NCBI GenBank assembly: GCA_009694965.1
Contig: SIBV01000003.1
Coordinates: 1 to 37,284, forward strand
Source of the DNA: Candidatus Zambryskiibacteriota bacterium
Lineage (GTDB): Bacteria; Patescibacteriota; Minisyncoccia; Phycocordibacterales; DATDWN01
Direction: 5' to 3'
DNA: 37,284 bases
The notes under the pieces are model-generated. The model was not told the origin of the DNA and made no database searches. It saw nothing but the letters and a program-made list of their open reading frames with translations. This document shows positions 3,973 through 27,665 of this stretch, piece by piece (the stretch's first letter is position 1; each line of letters begins with the position of its first letter). Both the position numbers and the translations under genes were made by a program.

Positions 3973-4845
3973 ATGCAAGGCATAGTCATTCTACTAGGAA
4001 TTATAGCTATTGGACTCTTTGGTGGGAGCAAGGGAGCTGGAAATAATGGCCTGTTCTCAACTGGTGCTCCAACCCCTGAACAAAAAAAAGCGAGTATAGA
4101 GTTCCAAATACGGGACGCCCAAGTAAAAGTCGACGAGCTTCAAAAACAAATCAAGACCGCAGAAGAGAATAAAAACGCCTCGATTTACAAAGGTGATGTC
4201 ACTTTGAACTATGGCAGTAGATCGACTGACCCTGGACAAGAATACCTAACTATAAAAGTCAGTAGCGGTGGCAACAAAAACATTCTAGTTACTGGATGGC
4301 AAGTAAAAAGCCTAGCTAGCGGAAACTCTGTGACGATTCCGAAAGGCACATATTTATTCTTCACGGAGACTATTAACTCGGAAGAAGATATCCGTCTTAC
4401 AGGGGGTGACACCTTATATCTTGTAACTGGCTCATCTCCGAACGGAGCTAGTTTCAAATCCAACAAATGTTCAGGATACCTAACTCAATTCCAAACTTTT
4501 ATACCTTATATAAATAACATCTGTCCTTCACCTAAAAACGAAAATCTGTCCTCAATACCCCGACGCGTTATAAACGATGCGTGTTTTGACTATATTGATT
4601 ACTTCCCTACTTGCAGAATACAGACTGAACCGCTTCCTCAAAATTGGAGTTCCGAGTGTTACAGTTTTATCTATGACAAAATTAACTATCCATCTTGTGT
4701 AAATGTGCACAAAAGCGATGCGGACTTCTACCAGCCAGAATGGAGAGTTTACCTCAAGCGCTCAGAAAGACTCTGGAAAAACTCCAAAGAAACTATAGTC
4801 TTGTATGACAGCACAGGCAAAGTAGTAGATACAATAAAAAATTAG
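3973..4845 (+). CDS. secreted/anchored hypothetical protein, lamin-tail-domain-like with several Cys
   Basis: N-terminal hydrophobic segment, coiled-coil, then beta-rich region (..LTIKVSSGGNKNILVTGWQVKS..GTYLFF..TLYLVTGSSPNGASFKSNKCSGYL..) ending IVLYDSTGKVVDTIKN. Confidence 0.5.
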   Translation: MQGIVILLGIIAIGLFGGSKGAGNNGLFSTGAPTPEQKKASIEFQIRDAQVKVDELQKQIKTAEENKNASIYKGDVTLNYGSRSTDPGQEYLTIKVSSGGNKNILVTGWQVKSLASGNSVTIPKGTYLFFTETINSEEDIRLTGGDTLYLVTGSSPNGASFKSNKCSGYLTQFQTFIPYINNICPSPKNENLSSIPRRVINDACFDYIDYFPTCRIQTEPLPQNWSSECYSFIYDKINYPSCVNVHKSDADFYQPEWRVYLKRSERLWKNSKETIVLYDSTGKVVDTIKN

Positions 4846-5339: not shown

Positions 5340-5391
5340 ATTTCAAATCATCATATCTTACGATATATCGTAAGATATGATGATTTGAAAT
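5340..5391. promoter_or_regulatory. 52-bp perfect uninterrupted palindrome between divergent genes
   Basis: ATTTCAAATCATCATATCTTACGATA|TATCGTAAGATATGATGATTTGAAAT. A candidate sigma70-like promoter TTGAAA (5385-5390)-17 nt-TACAAT (5408-5413) overlaps the right arm. Confidence 0.85.
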
Positions 5392-14011: not shown

Positions 14012-14073
14012 GTAGTAGAGCATAGCTCACTACACCTTAGACCCCGTAGTGAGCTATGCTCTACTACTAGGGT
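14012..14073. repeat. 22-bp perfect inverted repeat of a GTAGTGA-type hairpin upstream of ruvB
   Basis: GTAGTAGAGCATAGCTCACTAC (14012-14033) / GTAGTGAGCTATGCTCTACTAC (14046-14067); flanks CCCC..TAGGGT match the copy upstream of ruvA. Confidence 0.85.
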
Positions 14074-16383: not shown

Positions 16384-16889
16384 AAATAATCTCAATTGAT
16401 CCCGGCTATGAAAGACTTGGTATCGCCATAATAGAAAAACTTCCCAAAGGAAAGACCTTTGGGAAGGAGGTCTTAGTTTTTTCTGAGTGTTTTAAAACGT
16501 CCAGTAAACTTCCTCACCACGAGCGTCTGGCCCTTATCGGTAACAGAATAAAAGAAGTGATTAAAAAATTTAGACCAGAGCAATTAGCAACAGAAAAACT
16601 TTTCTTTAGTGGAAACCAAAAGACCGCGATGCTCGTAGCGGAGGCTAGAGGTGTAATTCTTTACACTGGAAGTTCTCTAGGACTTGAAGTTTTTGAATAC
16701 ACCCCAAACCAAGTGAAAATCGCTATCACTGGTTACGGCAGAAGTGAAAAGAAACAAATGATAGATATGACTAAAAAATTAATCGTGGTTAATTCTCCCT
16801 CGAACAGGCTCGGGACAAGCAAAACAAATAGTGATGATGAGTTTGATGCTATAGCCATCGGCCTCACCCATTTTGCGATAAACAGATAA
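16380..16889 (+). CDS. ruvC: crossover junction endodeoxyribonuclease RuvC
   Basis: MKIISIDPGYERLGIAIIEK..LATEKLFFSGNQKTAMLVAEARGVIL...YTPNQVKIAITGYGRSEKKQM..DDEFDAIAIGLTH; 4-nt overlap with the preceding HD gene. Confidence 0.93.
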   Translation: MKIISIDPGYERLGIAIIEKLPKGKTFGKEVLVFSECFKTSSKLPHHERLALIGNRIKEVIKKFRPEQLATEKLFFSGNQKTAMLVAEARGVILYTGSSLGLEVFEYTPNQVKIAITGYGRSEKKQMIDMTKKLIVVNSPSNRLGTSKTNSDDEFDAIAIGLTHFAINR

Positions 16890-16917
16890 ATCGGGTGAAT
16901 TCTTGATTAAAAATCTC

Positions 16918-16975
16918 ACCTCCTTACAGGAGCAGTACACCTTTCTCATCCTGGTTACAGGATGCTCAAGGTCTT
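16918..16975 (-). repeat. inverted second copy of the CCTTGAGCATCCT..GGTGTACTGCTCCTGTAAGGAGG element
   Basis: Reverse complement: ACCTTGAGCATCCTGTAACCAGGATGAGAAAGGTGTACTGCTCCTGTAAGGAGGT. Confidence 0.75.
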
Positions 16976-17047
16976 GCAGTTAGGCCCCACCCCCCAACCT
17001 CACCTCTCACTTCATACAGATTTCTCAGTTTATAAAATCTCGTTGAG

Positions 17048-17136
17048 TCATAATGTTTTTGGATTGTTCGCAGGTCGACGGACCGAGATTACAGAAATCG
17101 CACCAGCGATTTACGGGCTGTCCAAAAACATTATGA
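17048..17136. repeat. two-hairpin module enclosed by a 16-bp perfect outer stem
   Basis: TCATAATGTTTTTGGA (17048-17063) / TCCAAAAACATTATGA (17121-17136); inside GGTC-GACG-GACC, CGAG, GAAATCGC-ACCA-GCGATTTA. Confidence 0.8.
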
Positions 17137-17149
17137 GGAGAAAGGGATT

Positions 17150-19027
17150 TTAATTTCTCAGCATTTTCAAAAACACGTCCTGTGGAATGTCGACAGTCCC
17201 TCGGCCTCTTGCCTTCATCCTCTTCTTTCCCTTCTTTTGCTTTTCACGAAGTTTCATTTTTCGAGTGATGTCCCCTCCATACATATGCTGAGTCACATCT
17301 TTACTGAAAGCTGAAACTGTGCGACTGGAAATAATTCTACCCAACGCTTTTGCCTGAACCTTCATCACAAACATTTGGCGAGGAAGGAGCGCATGAAGTT
17401 TCTCAACCATCATTTCCGCTTCTGTTTCGACAATCCTTCTAGATACAACTCTAGAGAACGCGGGCAATACCTCATCAGCAACTAGAATATCCATTCTCAC
17501 AACATTAGCATCTCGCATTCCTTCTATCTCATAAGAAATAGAAGCGAAACCACTCGATGCACTTTTCAATTTATCAAAAAAGTTTCGCATAAGTTCACGA
17601 AGTGGCATTTTCAAAAATAGTCTCGTTCTATCATCTCCAAAGTTTTCTGAGTCCCCTAGTTCTGCCTCATGTTCATAAAGAAGTGGCATTAAATTAACTA
17701 GAAACTTTACTGGCGTAATAATAATACAGTTTACCCACGGCTCTCGTATTTCCGAAAGTAATCCTTCATCAGGAAAATGTGCAGGCGAATATATAGTCTC
17801 CATTTGTCCCGCCTTTGGTCCGCTTTTATAAACTACTTCATAAGTAATAGTCGGCATAGTCACCACTAGATCTAGATTGAATTCTCGATGAAGTCTTTCT
17901 GAAATAATTTCTAAGTGAAGCATCCCTAGGAACCCGCAACGAAACCCTCTTCCCAAAACTCCTGATGATTCTTCTTCATATGTATAAGAAGAATCAGACA
18001 ATTTCAGCTTTCCTAAGGCCTGCTTAAGACTCACAAAATCATCCTGACTCTCTGGGTAGATTGACGCCCACACGACAGGACGAGGAAGCATATAACCCTC
18101 AAGCGGCACACTGTTGTCACCAACAGTACCAACAGTGTCTCCAACAGAGGCGATGCCTGGCTCCTTTATTCCTGTTACAATATAACCAATTTCTCCCGCA
18201 CTGAGAGTTTCCACTGGAACTTCGCCTGGCGAGAATATGCCTACTTCGATTGAGTTAAATGTTTCTTTTGCAATTTTGAAAACAAGCGGAGTATTTCGAG
18301 AAACTTTTCCTTCCATCACGCGCACGAAAACAATAACTCCTCTGTGAGTAGAATATTTGAAATCAAAAATTAGAGACTTGAAGCTGTTGCCTTCTACCAT
18401 CCTTGGAGCGGGAACTTTCTTGATAACTTCACGAAGTAAATCATCAACACCTTCACCAGTTTTTCCTGATGTGTATAAAATATCTTCTGGACTACATTCA
18501 AGTAATTTAATCACTTCCATTTTTACCTCCTCTACTCGAGCTAAAGGAGAATCCACTTTCGATAAAACTGGAATGATGGTGAGTCCTGCTTCCCTCGCCA
18601 TTCCAAGGGTAGTCAACGTTTGAGCCTGAACACCTTGGGTTGAATCAACCAAAAGAATCGAGCCTTCTACCGCTTTTAAGGCTCGAGAAACTTCATATGA
18701 AAAATCTATATGCCCCGGTGTATCTATCAAATTCAGAATGTATTCTGAATTTGAATTTTCAATTTTTAATTTAGAATTTTCATTGGAAACTGAATCATTG
18801 ATTGGAAATTGAGAATTGGAAATTGGAAATTTTGGTCGATAGACCATCCTCACAGGTTGCATCTTGATAGTAATCCCTCTCTCTCGTTCAAGTTCCATTG
18901 AGTCAAGGACCTGTTCCTGCATTTTCCGTTTTTCTATAGTGCCGGTTAGCTCAAGCATTCTGTCAGCTAAAGTAGATTTACCATGGTCTATGTGGGCGAT
19001 GATACTAAAGTTTCGAATGTTTTCCAT
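17150..19027 (-). CDS. lepA: elongation factor 4 (LepA) with a repeat-derived insertion
   Basis: MENIRNFSIIAHIDHGKSTLADRMLE...LNLIDTPGHIDFSYEVSRALKAVEG; ~29 extra aa KFPISNSQFPINDSVSNENSKLKIENSNS before EYILNLIDTPGH. Confidence 0.96.
   Translation of the reverse strand: MENIRNFSIIAHIDHGKSTLADRMLELTGTIEKRKMQEQVLDSMELERERGITIKMQPVRMVYRPKFPISNSQFPINDSVSNENSKLKIENSNSEYILNLIDTPGHIDFSYEVSRALKAVEGSILLVDSTQGVQAQTLTTLGMAREAGLTIIPVLSKVDSPLARVEEVKMEVIKLLECSPEDILYTSGKTGEGVDDLLREVIKKVPAPRMVEGNSFKSLIFDFKYSTHRGVIVFVRVMEGKVSRNTPLVFKIAKETFNSIEVGIFSPGEVPVETLSAGEIGYIVTGIKEPGIASVGDTVGTVGDNSVPLEGYMLPRPVVWASIYPESQDDFVSLKQALGKLKLSDSSYTYEEESSGVLGRGFRCGFLGMLHLEIISERLHREFNLDLVVTMPTITYEVVYKSGPKAGQMETIYSPAHFPDEGLLSEIREPWVNCIIITPVKFLVNLMPLLYEHEAELGDSENFGDDRTRLFLKMPLRELMRNFFDKLKSASSGFASISYEIEGMRDANVVRMDILVADEVLPAFSRVVSRRIVETEAEMMVEKLHALLPRQMFVMKVQAKALGRIISSRTVSAFSKDVTQHMYGGDITRKMKLREKQKKGKKRMKARGRGTVDIPQDVFLKMLRN
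18753..18832. repeat. TTTTCAATT-type palindromic element inside lepA
   Basis: GAATTTTCAATTTTTAATTTAGAATTTTCATTGGAAACTGAATCATTGATTGGAAATTGAGAATTGGAAATTGGAAATTTTGG. Confidence 0.85.
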
Positions 19028-23282: not shown

Positions 23283-23407
23283 TGTTTTTAAATTATTTAG
23301 TTTTATATCCTTATATTATATAGTTATTATCTTACTGATTCAATGTTGACCCCGTTAGAGTTTTACAATTTGAAATAATTTATTTTTATGGTATAATAGA
23401 ATTGTTA

Positions 23408-23896
23408 TGTTGGATAAGTGCTCTTTAGCTATTTATAGCTAAAGGGAGGAAAGTCCGAACATCAAGTTTAGATTTATCTAAACAAGAGTAGCGGGTAACG
23501 CCCGTCGGGAGTAATCCTAGAGGTGCGAGCAGTGACGTCCGAGGCGAAAGCCAGAGAATTCCGCTGCGTTAAAGCAGATGGAATAATTTTATGGAAACAT
23601 AAAAGTGAAACGGCAAAATCCTTACTTTGATGCAAGGCCGTACCCGACTGCACCTCACTGGGTTCAGTGCAGAATTTTCAATTTTCAATTTCTAATTTTC
23701 AAACAATTCTCAATGTATCAAAGGGGAATTAATTCATTGAAAACTGAAAATTAGAAATTAGAAATTCTGTCCGAGCAAAGCGAGGTGCAGTTGGGGGTGC
23801 CGCTTGATCACCGTGGTAACACGAGCGACAGATAAATACTTATCGTCGAGCACCAGTTCTGGTGCTCGATACAGAATTCGGCTTATAGACACAACA
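23408..23896 (+). ncRNA. rnpB: RNase P RNA carrying an inserted palindromic element
   Basis: CR-I GGGAGGAAAGTCCGAACA, ACGGCAAAATCC..GATGCAAGGCC, GCTTGA, 3' ACAGAATTCGGCTTATAGAC; TATAAT at 23392-23397. Confidence 0.93.
23672..23766. repeat. TTTTCAATT-type palindromic element inside rnpB
   Basis: GAATTTTCAATTTTCAATTTCTAATTTTCA...TGAAAACTGAAAATTAGAAATTAGAAATTC. Confidence 0.9.
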
Positions 23897-23901
23897 AAAA
23901 T

Positions 23902-24024: not shown

Positions 24025-24657
24025 TTAATCAAAAACTAGGTCCTTTAACTCAGCCTTGTCTTTCAAAATCTCATAACTTGATTTGGTGAAATCTTTAAAC
24101 TCAGCAATGTCTTTAAATTGACTGAGTATGATTTCATTATCACATATATTATTAGAATTAATCCCAATGAATTCCGGGTAACTACTCCATTTGTAATTTT
24201 CTATATTTTTCACAATTCCTCCTATTTTAGGATTTTGGTGAAGATAACAAGTTAACCAATTTAAATACTCATTATCCCCTATCGTTATCTGCTTGAATTG
24301 ATCTTGAAATATATGACCGACCTTATCATACTTTCTATTAAAATATTTTGAATGTATTGAAAACAAAGGATTTCTCGGTTGATGGGAATCCTTTGTTTTC
24401 AATACATTCAAAATCTCGGCTGGACGAGATGTTGTTGTTTCATAATGATTTTGAGTTTCCTGTGCTTTTTCATCTGGAGTAGTTCTGTATGACAAAACTG
24501 ATTCCTCTAAAACAAACCAGGAACGATCAATCCTTCTTGATGTAATTTTATCTTGTCTGCAAAGCTGTCCAATGTAGTCTCTAGAGTAGCCGGTAATTCT
24601 ACTGGCCTCTTTTATTGAAATATATTTCTTCCCTTCAAAGTAAGCGTCAGAATTCAT
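24025..24657 (-). CDS. chimera: N-terminal excisionase/MerR-like HTH fused to the C-terminal part of a RAYT/Y1 transposase lacking the HUH motif
   Basis: ATG at 24657 (MNSDAYFEGKKYISIKEASRITGYSRDYIGQLCRQDKITSRRIDRSWFVLEE) followed by YFNRKYDKVGHIFQDQFKQITIGDNEYLNWLTCYLHQNPKIGGIVKNIENYKWSSYPEF; no HxH motif. Confidence 0.7.
   Translation of the reverse strand: MNSDAYFEGKKYISIKEASRITGYSRDYIGQLCRQDKITSRRIDRSWFVLEESVLSYRTTPDEKAQETQNHYETTTSRPAEILNVLKTKDSHQPRNPLFSIHSKYFNRKYDKVGHIFQDQFKQITIGDNEYLNWLTCYLHQNPKIGGIVKNIENYKWSSYPEFIGINSNNICDNEIILSQFKDIAEFKDFTKSSYEILKDKAELKDLVFD
24345..24414. repeat. 28-bp perfect inverted repeat with 14-nt spacer inside the chimeric gene
   Basis: ATTTTGAATGTATTGAAAACAAAGGATT (24345-24372) / AATCCTTTGTTTTCAATACATTCAAAAT (24387-24414). 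Confidence 0.93.
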
Positions 24658-24679
24658 TAGTAAAATTATAGCGTTCAAA

Positions 24680-24710
24680 TGTGGATAAATTGTGAATAAT
24701 ATGGGGATAA
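24680..24710 (-). promoter_or_regulatory. three DnaA-box-like 9-mers at 11-bp spacing
   Basis: TGTGGATAA (24680), TGTGAATAA (24691), TGGGGATAA (24702), directly upstream of the TATAAT of the chimeric gene. Confidence 0.5.
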
Positions 24711-24960
24711 CAAAAGATATTTCAGAAGAGTTCACCCTTCTGAAATATCAATTTAGAATTTTTAAATTGGATACAAATTATATATAGGATTTGATACAGA
24801 GCCTATAAATTTTCTCTTTACTAATAGTATGTCTTGTCTATAACTTTTTCTAAATTTTAAAGTTTAAATTCTGAAAGTTATCAACAGGTAACATTGTTAA
24901 TCTAATATAAACTTTGTATTATTAAGTCATAGCTTTATCAATCTTTATTAATGTACTACT

Positions 24961-25203
24961 ATTGCAAATCAATATATAACAATAAAACAAGCTTCCAAGA
25001 TTCTTGGTGTAGCTCCACTAACTCTTCGTAATTGGGACAATAGCGGAAAGCTAAAGGCTCATAGGCATCCTATGAACAACTACAGAGTTTACAAAATTGA
25101 AGATCTAGAAAAGGTAATTATGGAAATTGAGACCAACACTGGACTAAGAAAAAGTAGTAAAAAAGATGTTAGGAAGCTCATCGTGAAGCATCTAGAAGAG
25201 TAA
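24961..25203 (+). CDS. MerR-like HTH protein without a standard start codon
   Basis: Frame NQYITIKQASKILGVAPLTLRNWDNSGKLKAHRHPMNNYRVYKIEDLEKVIMEIETNTGLRKSSKKDVRKLIVKHLEE*; upstream in-frame stop with no ATG/GTG/TTG, only ATT or other rare codons. Confidence 0.55.
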   Translation: MANQYITIKQASKILGVAPLTLRNWDNSGKLKAHRHPMNNYRVYKIEDLEKVIMEIETNTGLRKSSKKDVRKLIVKHLEE

Positions 25204-25209
25204 CAACAT

Positions 25210-25241
25210 AAAACAGCTCTGACAAATGTCAAGGGCTGTTT
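25210..25241 (+). terminator. hairpin terminator after the MerR-like gene
   Basis: AAACAGCTCTGACA-AA-TGTCAAGGGCTGTTT then TATTTTATT. Confidence 0.65.
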
Positions 25242-25281
25242 ATTTTATTAACCAACCCTCATCTCTCTACCCTTCTTACAT

Positions 25282-25306
25282 TATGGCAAGGTTAAACCTT
25301 GCCATA
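25282..25306. repeat. REP-like hairpin, left flank of RAYT
   Basis: TATGGCAAGG-TTAAA-CCTTGCCATA. Confidence 0.85.
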
Positions 25307-25333
25307 TGAAGAAAGAAAAACTATAATATACAG

Positions 25334-26011
25334 ATGACACGTTCAACCACAATCTCAATTGATGAATTTTATCACGTTTATAATAGGGGTACTGAGAAAA
25401 GAAAAATATTTAACACACGGTATGATTACGAACGTTTTATAGCTCTTCTCTATCTGTGCAACTCTACTGAACCAATACGCATAAGAAGTAAGTACTTAAA
25501 TGAAATGCTTGATACTAAGCGCGGTAAAAAACTAGTAGACATTGGTGCGTACTGTCTCATGCCAAATCACTTTCATCTTTTGTTATACGAATGTGTTGAG
25601 GATGGCACCAGTCTGTTTATGCAGAAACTAACAACAGCCTACACGATGTATTTCAATAAGAAAAACGATAGGGTTGGAAGTTTGTTTCAAGGTACATTCA
25701 AAGCTGAGCATCTAGACGATGATGAATATTTAAAATATATTTTTGCATACATTCACTTGAATCCTGTTAAACTTATTGAACCTAAATGGAGGGAGGATGG
25801 GATCAAAAACCGCACTGGAGCAAAAAACTTTTTGAAAAATTATTCATATTCAAGTTACTCAGAATTTACCGGAGTCGACAGAAAAGAAAAAGTCATCCTC
25901 TCCCCTACTGCCTTTCCAAAGTATTTTGAAAAGGTGGATGACTTTCAAAAAATGATTAACTTCTGGATCGAGTTCAAGAATGAATACCTTCTGCCAGAGA
26001 AAGAAATCTAA
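25334..26011 (+). mobile_element. Y1/HUH transposase of the RAYT (REP-associated tyrosine transposase, IS200-like) family
   Basis: DEFYHVYNRGTEKRKIF..., HUH motif MPNHFHLLL, AYIHLNPVK Tyr region, C-terminal YSSYSEFTG; flanked by REP-like hairpins. Confidence 0.93.
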
Positions 26012-26019
26012 AAACTAGA

Positions 26020-26048
26020 AGTATGGCGAGGTTTAACCTCGCCATACT
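26020..26048. repeat. REP-like hairpin, right flank of RAYT
   Basis: AGTATGGCGAGG-TTTAA-CCTCGCCATACT. Confidence 0.85.
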
Positions 26049-26114: not shown

Positions 26115-27665
26115 CTATTTTAATAACTCAAGAGTAATTTTTCGGATCAGTTCTGGATTGCCAGCGCCTTTCATCGCCTTCATACCATGGCCTACAAAAA
26201 AATGAAGGAGTGATTCTTTGCCGGCTTTGTAGCCCGCAACACTCTCGGGGTTAGTGGTGATTATTTCTTGCATAACTGCTCTAAGCTCTTCTGAATCATT
26301 TTTCTGAATCAATCCTTTCTCTTTTGCAATCACTTCTGGACTTCCGCCGACTACATACATTATTTTTAAAACATCCTTTGCTCCACGTGATGACAAGTCG
26401 CCACTTTTAATCATAATTATTAAACTTACAAAATTTTCAACTTCAATAAGTCCCAAAGAAAACTCATTTCCAGCAACTTTCGAAAGTCCGATAATATCTG
26501 ATGTAATGTAATTTGATGCAGACTGAACAATTTCTGAGCCTTGAGCTATTAATTGTTTGGAAACTGTTTCAAAGAAATTACACGCTTCCCTATTGTTTAT
26601 GTATGTCTCGATATCCGAACTCTTTAGACCAAAATCTTTTGAGAACCTTTCTCTCTTTTGTTGAGGTAGTTCTGGTATTGATTTTTTTATTGTTTCATAA
26701 TCAAATTCTGGAATTTCTGAAATAAATATCTTTGGTAAATCAGGTTCAGGGAAATATCTGTAGTCATGAGCGGACTCTTTTGCTCTTTGACTGAAAGTCA
26801 CACTTTTGTTTTCATCCCACCCGCGGGTTTCCTGGATCACCTTTTCTCCCTTTTCCAAAATTGATTTTTGTCTTTCGAATTCAAAATCAATAGCCTTTCC
26901 AGCAGCTCGGAAGGAGTTTATATTTTTTACCTCCACTTTCGTCCCTAATTGGTCATTGGACATTGGAACTTGGGATTTATTGACGCTTATATTCACCTCA
27001 ACTCTCATTTCCCCTTTTTCCATGTTGGCATCAGATACTCCTAAATATTGAAGAAGTAGTTGAAACTCTCTGGCAAAATTCATAGCATCAACACTTGAGT
27101 GAATTACAGGTTCTGTAACTAATTCCATCAAAGGCACCCCTGCTCTGTTATAGTCAACTAAAGAATTTTCAGTTCTCAATTTTGCAATTTTCATTGAATT
27201 TTCAATGTTTGAATTTTCATTGGAAATTGACTCATTGAGATTTGATTGGAAATTGGAAATTGGAAATTGTGAATTAGCCCCACTGTCATGTATCGATCTT
27301 GCAGTATCTTCTTCAAGATGGATGCGAGTTAAATCCACTCCGTCAATAGAGCCCCCAGAAACTAGAGGGTATTTATACTGACTTATCTGATACCCTTTTG
27401 GGATATCAGGATAGAAATAGTTCTTTCTATCGAACTCAGTAAAGTTGGCGAGCTTGCTCCCTACAGCCACCCCCACAGACAAAACCTTTTTAATGGCCTC
27501 CTTGTTTATAACAGGGAGCGTCCCAGGGTGACCCATACATATTGGACAGATATTTGCGTTTGGAGACTTTTCTTCTGGATCGTTTTTACATCCACAAAAC
27601 ATTTTACTCTTTGTTTTGAGTTCAGCGTGAATCTCGAGACCAACTGTTATCTTATAATCTGACAT
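26115..27665 (-). CDS. gatB: aspartyl/glutamyl-tRNA amidotransferase subunit B with a repeat-derived insertion
   Basis: YKITVGLEIHAELKTKSKMFCGCKND...NICPICMGHPGTLPVIN...; ~38 extra aa ANSQFPISNFQSNLNESISNENSNIENSMKIAKLRTEN between SIHDSG and SLVDYNRAGVPLMELVTEP. Confidence 0.96.
   Translation of the reverse strand: MSDYKITVGLEIHAELKTKSKMFCGCKNDPEEKSPNANICPICMGHPGTLPVINKEAIKKVLSVGVAVGSKLANFTEFDRKNYFYPDIPKGYQISQYKYPLVSGGSIDGVDLTRIHLEEDTARSIHDSGANSQFPISNFQSNLNESISNENSNIENSMKIAKLRTENSLVDYNRAGVPLMELVTEPVIHSSVDAMNFAREFQLLLQYLGVSDANMEKGEMRVEVNISVNKSQVPMSNDQLGTKVEVKNINSFRAAGKAIDFEFERQKSILEKGEKVIQETRGWDENKSVTFSQRAKESAHDYRYFPEPDLPKIFISEIPEFDYETIKKSIPELPQQKRERFSKDFGLKSSDIETYINNREACNFFETVSKQLIAQGSEIVQSASNYITSDIIGLSKVAGNEFSLGLIEVENFVSLIIMIKSGDLSSRGAKDVLKIMYVVGGSPEVIAKEKGLIQKNDSEELRAVMQEIITTNPESVAGYKAGKESLLHFFVGHGMKAMKGAGNPELIRKITLELLK
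27163..27275. repeat. TTTTCAATT-type palindromic element inside gatB
   Basis: GAATTTTCAGTTCTCAATTTTGCAATTTTCATTGAATTTTCAATG...ATTGGAAATTGGAAATTGGAAATTGTGAATT. Confidence 0.85.

What the first reader, a model, noticed from the sequence alone, without database searches (positions are those of the whole stretch)
24345..24414. 28-bp perfect inverted repeat at the chimera junction, inside coding sequence
ATTTTGAATGTATTGAAAACAAAGGATT and its exact inverse, spaced by 14 nt, lie precisely where HTH-linker sequence meets RAYT sequence. One arm encodes native-looking RAYT residues (NPLFSIHSKYF), the other ILNVLKTKD as an inverted copy. This suggests a fold-back (template-switch) event that deleted the HUH segment and made the junction. 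Perfect identity implies it is recent or maintained.
Basis: partly seen in the sequence, partly recalled or inferred. Interest (0 to 1): 0.75.

Follow-up and report, generated by a model that had tools for sequence, protein, structure and literature searches.

The report
Hairpin scar at a deletion fusion
A perfect 28-base inverted repeat really does sit where the start of a giant surface-protein gene has been fused, by a multi-kilobase deletion, to the tail of a transposase gene; it looks like an ordinary DNA-repair or template-switch scar, not a new functional element.

Summary
Window 24345-24372 and 24387-24414 are perfect 28-bp inverted arms with a 14-nt spacer, far beyond chance, inside an open frame (24657-24025, minus strand). 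Synteny explains the frame. In sister genomes this slot (gatB - MerR-like gene - slot - rnpB - ligase) holds a giant HTH-TM-surface protein gene of about 8-13 kb, with a full-length RAYT 11 bp behind it in one genome. Here a deletion has removed the giant body and the HUH half of the RAYT, and fused the HTH start to the last 109 RAYT residues.

Two details are not. Only the outer 10 nt of the RAYT-side arm (24345-24354, HSK) is RAYT sequence; the inner 18 nt (NPLFSI) scores below all 42 native RAYTs. So the fusion boundary lies inside the arm, and the inverted copy either post-dates the fusion or was joined to the RAYT through about 10 nt of microhomology. The IR is unique in its genome, is not a REP/REPIN or terminator, and has no relatives in 399 genomes searched. 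Best reading: a fold-back template-switch insertion at a large deletion, leaving a catalytically dead chimera. An assembly artefact cannot be excluded without reads.

The parts
24387..24414 (-). Arm 2 of the inverted repeat (HTH side), encodes ILNVLKTKD
   Evidence: perfect inverse of arm 1; unique in own genome
24373..24386 (-). 14-nt spacer (loop), coding CCCATCAACCGAGA
24345..24372 (-). Arm 1 of the inverted repeat (RAYT side), encodes NPLFSIHSK
24345..24354 (-). Outer 10 nt of arm 1 (CATTCAAAAT, coding HSK): RAYT-derived foot of the stem; the RAYT boundary is at 24354/24355
   Evidence: RAYT DNA and protein similarity across the order starts here
24355..24372 (-). Inner 18 nt of arm 1 (NPLFSI): not RAYT-like, origin undetermined
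   Evidence: PSSM below all 42 native RAYTs for the columns tested
24025..24354 (-). RAYT C-terminal part (109 residues and stop), with the YxxxNP region but without the HUH motif
   Evidence: 54/109 identical, ungapped, to RAYT of G012; NF047646 75-146
24415..24657 (-). HTH_17 start and beginning of the linker of the giant HTH surface-protein gene
   Evidence: 60-65% identical over about 62 residues to giant genes
24025..24657 (-). Chimeric open frame, 210 aa from ATG 24657
24373..24381 (+). Imperfect direct repeat copy TCTCGGTTG at the loop side of arm 1 (partner TCTCGGCTG at 24414-24422)
   Evidence: 8/9 identical, P about 2e-4 for that alignment
23402..23901 (+). rnpB (RNase P RNA), right anchor of the locus in gene order
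   Evidence: RF00010, 105 bits
24970..25200 (+). MerR-like small HTH gene, syntenic anchor between gatB and the HTH gene
   Evidence: Pfam MerR; same place in G003 and G012
26115..27665 (-). gatB, left anchor of the locus in gene order (name from recognition of the sequence)
   Evidence: same gene precedes the slot in G003 and G012

Best explanation
The 70-nt hairpin is the scar of a fold-back template switch at the junction of a large deletion. Shown: this slot in relatives holds a giant HTH-TM-surface protein gene and, in one relative, a RAYT right behind it on the same strand; here only the HTH start and the RAYT tail remain, joined at a perfect 28-bp IR whose outer 10 nt is RAYT sequence. 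Inferred: a break or stalled fork left a 3' end that folded back over a 14-nt loop, was extended 28 nt on itself, unwound and was joined to the other side. The order is open: either the fusion came first and the fold-back copied across it, or the HTH-side end folded back and its copy was joined to the RAYT through about 10 nt of microhomology. The product is a chimera without the HUH motif, presumably inactive as a nuclease, and recent or maintained.
For: Synteny: G003 has gatB - MerR-like - giant HTH gene - rnpB - ligase; G012 has gatB - MerR-like - giant HTH gene (4377 aa) - RAYT on the same strand; G004 and G008 have a long surface-protein-like frame and a RAYT before rnpB - ligase. The G012 RAYT is the best match of the chimera's C-terminus in the searches, 54/109 identical without a gap. 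The body that follows the HTH in relatives is found in this genome only on C22, the other copy, so it is not left over elsewhere in the assembly. RAYT similarity begins 10 nt inside the arm. Perfect arms, 14-nt loop, single copy. Fold-back inverted insertions, mostly 5-34 bp, are known at breaks in yeast (PMC11724301), and template switching can make perfect hairpins in one event (PMC8794818).
Against: No reads and no close strain: neither the ancestral sequence nor the polarity (which arm was the template) is known. The origin of the inner 18 nt is unknown; comparison of arm 2 and spacer with the poorly conserved giant linker is inconclusive. Fold-back insertion at breaks is documented in the paper read for yeast, not for this bacterial group. 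The 8/9 direct repeat is not explained by the simplest version.
Confidence: 0.7

Rival explanations
1. Assembly or library artefact: a fold-back chimeric read or a gap closed wrongly joins the HTH linker to the RAYT, and the giant gene is really still there.
For: Another giant HTH gene in this assembly (C22) is cut off by the contig end, the genome is 87% complete in 29 contigs, and giant repetitive genes are hard to assemble.
Against: The contig has the right synteny on both sides of the junction. The join needs two separate jumps, each through single-copy sequence. No orphan body of the giant gene exists elsewhere in the assembly. The chimera keeps an open frame.
Confidence: 0.15
2. A mobile palindromic element (REPIN-like, or like the Rickettsia palindromic elements) inserted in frame.
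For: Sister genome G012 has REPIN-like inverted palindrome pairs at several sites, including inside its RAYT and giant genes. RAYTs in this family lie next to palindromes.
Against: One copy only in the genome at up to 3 mismatches; no relative seen in 399 genomes; AT-rich and different from the palindromes beside the local RAYT; its outer 10 nt is RAYT gene sequence.
Confidence: 0.05
3. A selected RNA or DNA hairpin (attenuator, terminator or regulatory site) inside the chimeric gene.
For: Very strong RNA hairpin.
Against: The terminator scan does not report it and no T-run follows either arm. No conservation in any relative. It sits inside a coding frame at a deletion junction.
Confidence: 0.04

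Closest known systems
Template-switch mutation / fold-back inverted insertion (PMC8794818; PMC11724301)
   Same: Perfect inverted copy of a short stretch next to its template, short loop, at a rearrangement junction; 28 nt lies within the 5-34 bp range given for most events in yeast.
RAYT (REP-associated tyrosine transposase, NF047646; PMC2817692)
   Same: The C-terminal 109 residues are homologous and collinear with RAYTs of the family, including the YxxxNP region.
   Different: The N-terminal half with the HUH motif is missing and is replaced by an HTH; no REP-like palindrome pair of its own was identified.
REPIN / BIME palindrome pairs
   Same: Two inverted arms with a spacer of 10-15 nt, near RAYT genes.
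   Different: Single copy, AT-rich, unrelated to the palindromes beside the local RAYT.
Coding palindromes of nematomorph mitochondria (PMC6649704)
   Same: Perfect inverted repeat inside an open frame.
   Different: There both arms encode conserved residues of working proteins; here most of both arms matches nothing conserved.

Membership tests
Template-switch / fold-back insertion | Perfect reverse-complement copy adjacent to its template with a short spacer | tested here: met
   28/28, 14-nt spacer
Template-switch / fold-back insertion | One arm contains the native sequence of a flank | tested here: inconclusive
   Outer 10 nt of arm 1 is RAYT sequence; the inner 18 nt has no known source
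Template-switch / fold-back insertion | Absent from the ancestral sequence | not testable with these tools
   No close strain held; the nearest relatives are about 50-65% identical in protein
RAYT | HUH motif | tested here: not met
   Similarity covers only positions 75-146 of NF047646; the MPNHFH region of relatives is missing from the frame
RAYT | C-terminal domain with the YxxxNP region | tested here: met
   CYLHQNP in the frame; 54/109 identical to the G012 RAYT
REP / REPIN | Multiple dispersed copies | tested here: not met
   One place in the genome
Intrinsic terminator | G+C-rich stem followed by a T-run | tested here: not met
   Not in the terminator scan; flanks
Giant HTH-TM-surface protein of this family | HTH start followed by a TM segment and a long body | tested here: not met
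   Only the HTH and start of the linker remain; the body model hits only C22

The most novel reading that the evidence does not exclude
The fold-back brought the HTH and the RAYT tail into one frame and so made a new gene: a DNA-binding protein of giant-gene HTH plus RAYT C-terminus, kept by selection, with the mRNA hairpin tuning its expression.
Probability: 0.05. Interest if true: 0.5.

Novelty: new member of a known kind. Interest (0 to 1): 0.27.

Why it matters
If the join is real, it is a clear natural example in a reduced bacterial genome of a large deletion whose junction carries a fold-back copy, and of how a giant surface-protein gene can be reduced to a small HTH chimera. It also warns annotators that this frame is neither a working RAYT nor a designed fusion.

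Tried and rejected
Tested whether NPLFSI is native RAYT: rejected (DNA-level RAYT matches start at query 97-98). Tested whether arm 2 or NPLFS is native giant-gene linker: inconclusive (the linker is poorly conserved). Considered a frame-shifted reading SRPAEKSFVFN against G003 SRIAEKIYTAN: suggestive only, not used. Looked for other copies of the arm in the genome, in 399 genomes of the order and in viral contigs: none. One search listed many short AT-rich matches; 20 of these loci were read one by one and are either RAYT genes matching only from the foot onward, or short matches outside RAYT frames; the rest were not read. Terminator and REP readings rejected. The genome-contig scan gave only distant RAYTs. 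One Pfam call failed on a wrong frame and was repeated.

Full report
Observation. The minus strand reads CAGCCGAG | ATTTTGAATGTATTGAAAACAAAGGATT | CCCATCAACCGAGA | AATCCTTTGTTTTCAATACATTCAAAAT | ATTTTAATAG. The arms are 24345-24372 and 24387-24414, 28/28 paired, 14 nt apart. No base pair extends the stem outwards. Ten Markov-simulated sequences of window length had longest perfect hairpins of 10-12 nt, so this is not chance. Long perfect hairpins do occur elsewhere in the window (26 bp at 5340-5391, 22 bp at 14012-14067) and in sister loci; those two appear from the frame map to lie outside genes, whereas this one lies in an open frame.

What the frame is. From ATG 24657 to the stop at 24025 the minus strand encodes 210 aa: an HTH_17 domain, a short linker, the IR, and the C-terminal part of a REP-associated tyrosine transposase (NF047646 positions 75-146). 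The chimera has a match in 16 of 17 genomes of the family including its own, but outside its own genome the two halves only match separately. The HTH half matches the start of long proteins (up to more than 4000 aa) with a TM segment after the linker in those read. Frames at the 3' side of this locus in relatives carry Peptidase_S74 (G003) or Laminin_G_3 and DUF2341 (G004) domains. The RAYT half matches separate RAYTs of mostly 200-270 aa. No other genome examined was seen to have both in one frame.

Ancestral locus. In G003 (same genus) the order is gatB, MerR-like gene (opposite strand), giant HTH gene (L094 1569-9722, with a stretch of N, then a second long frame to 11760), rnpB, ligase/TPR gene: the same anchors and order as the window read in reverse. 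In G012 (sister genus) it is gatB, MerR-like gene, giant gene of 4377 aa (L098 3658-16791), then a full-length RAYT at 16803-17465 on the same strand. That RAYT is the best match of the chimera's C-terminus in the searches: 54/109 identical without a gap, from HSK to the last residue. In G004 and G008 a long surface-protein-like frame, then a RAYT on the other strand, precede rnpB and the ligase. So the window carries the two ends of a giant-gene-plus-RAYT locus without its middle. A profile of the giant body next to the HTH finds only contig C22 in this genome, which is the other copy.

Where the fusion boundary is. Across the order, RAYT DNA resembles the window from (C/T)ATTCAAAATATTTTAAT onward, that is from query position 97-98 or window 24354. 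Upstream of this, many native RAYTs read like IS.L..K[IL]C[TG]SYS; the window reads SHQPRNPLFSIHS. In a PSSM of 42 RAYTs the stretch NPLFS is no better than random (P 0.44; 0.94 for the nine columns KDSHQPRNP) and below every native RAYT, while IHSK is RAYT-like (P 0.01). The boundary is therefore most likely inside arm 1, 10 nt from its outer end.

Mechanism. The outer 10 nt of the stem is RAYT DNA, and arm 2 is its perfect inverse, next to HTH-gene sequence. Two orders fit. (Q) Other sequence, presumably from the giant gene, was already joined to the RAYT at 24354/24355, and a fold-back then copied 28 nt across that boundary. (P) The HTH-side end folded back, was extended 28 nt, and its new end was joined to the RAYT through about 10 nt of microhomology, making deletion and hairpin in one event. 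Q needs two steps; P needs a 10-nt coincidence that a joining process could itself select. I do not claim to separate them. Fold-back copies of mostly 5-34 bp at breaks, joined to the second end, are documented in yeast (PMC11724301), and single-event perfect hairpins by template switching are documented (PMC8794818). Their occurrence here is inference. An 8/9 direct repeat TCTCGG(C/T)TG lies at the outer edge of arm 2 and at the loop side of arm 1 (P about 2e-4 for that alignment; I noticed it before testing it, so the true figure is weaker). It may be a trace of realignment but is not explained.

Function. The HUH half is lost, so the product is not expected to work as a RAYT (established knowledge of HUH enzymes). 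The RAYT-derived frame is still open for its 109 codons, while the two other frames hold 10 and 20 stops; random sequence of this composition would stay open for 108 codons with probability 0.0007. This shows that it is recent or maintained, not which. The RNA hairpin is strong but is not a terminator.

What remains uncertain. The main gap is read support. The contig has correct synteny on both sides and the join needs two jumps through single-copy sequence, which speaks against an artefact. But another giant gene in this assembly is cut by a contig end, so I keep 15% for it. Which order, P or Q, needs a close relative.

Verdict. Observation right; deletion reading right and now backed by synteny; the details of which residues are RAYT and what made the junction are corrected. 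Kind: a known mutational process at an interesting place.

Noticed in passing
window 24657-25334; G000:C22:4416-5137; RAYT genes lie repeatedly 0.5-3 kb from the HTH giant-protein gene, mostly in divergent orientation (both places in this genome; also G174:C3, G125:C4, G244:C22, G239:C4, G027:C18, G207:C18, G053:C29, G039:C31, G224:C19, G179:C9, G189:C8, G046:C12). Counted by eye from the two hit tables; by a rough estimate well above chance.
   Followed up: partly
window 23402-23901 and loci L084-L096: rnpB lies next to the same ligase/TPR gene in the family but its orientation relative to that gene differs: divergent in 6 genomes, co-directional in 8. On a tree of the ligase protein well-supported branches force at least 3 changes.
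   Followed up: partly
G012:C18:72950-72998 and C18:71367-71412 (L098 16948-17000 and 15365-15414): REPIN-like inverted pairs of AAAAGGGTGCCCCTTTT-type palindromes at about eight sites in G012, two of them inside coding frames: the RAYT itself and the giant gene.
   Followed up: partly
window 25275-25306 and 26020-26048; G000:C22:3701-3713 and 4451-4463: The intact RAYT at 25334-26011 and its damaged copy on C22 are flanked on both sides by related palindromes; the core GAGGTTWAACCTC (up to 1 mismatch) is found only at 26028 and at the two C22 sites in this genome.
   Followed up: partly
window 5340-5391 and 14012-14067: Two further long perfect hairpins (26 bp with no loop; 22 bp with a 12-nt loop), apparently outside genes; nature not examined.
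   Followed up: no
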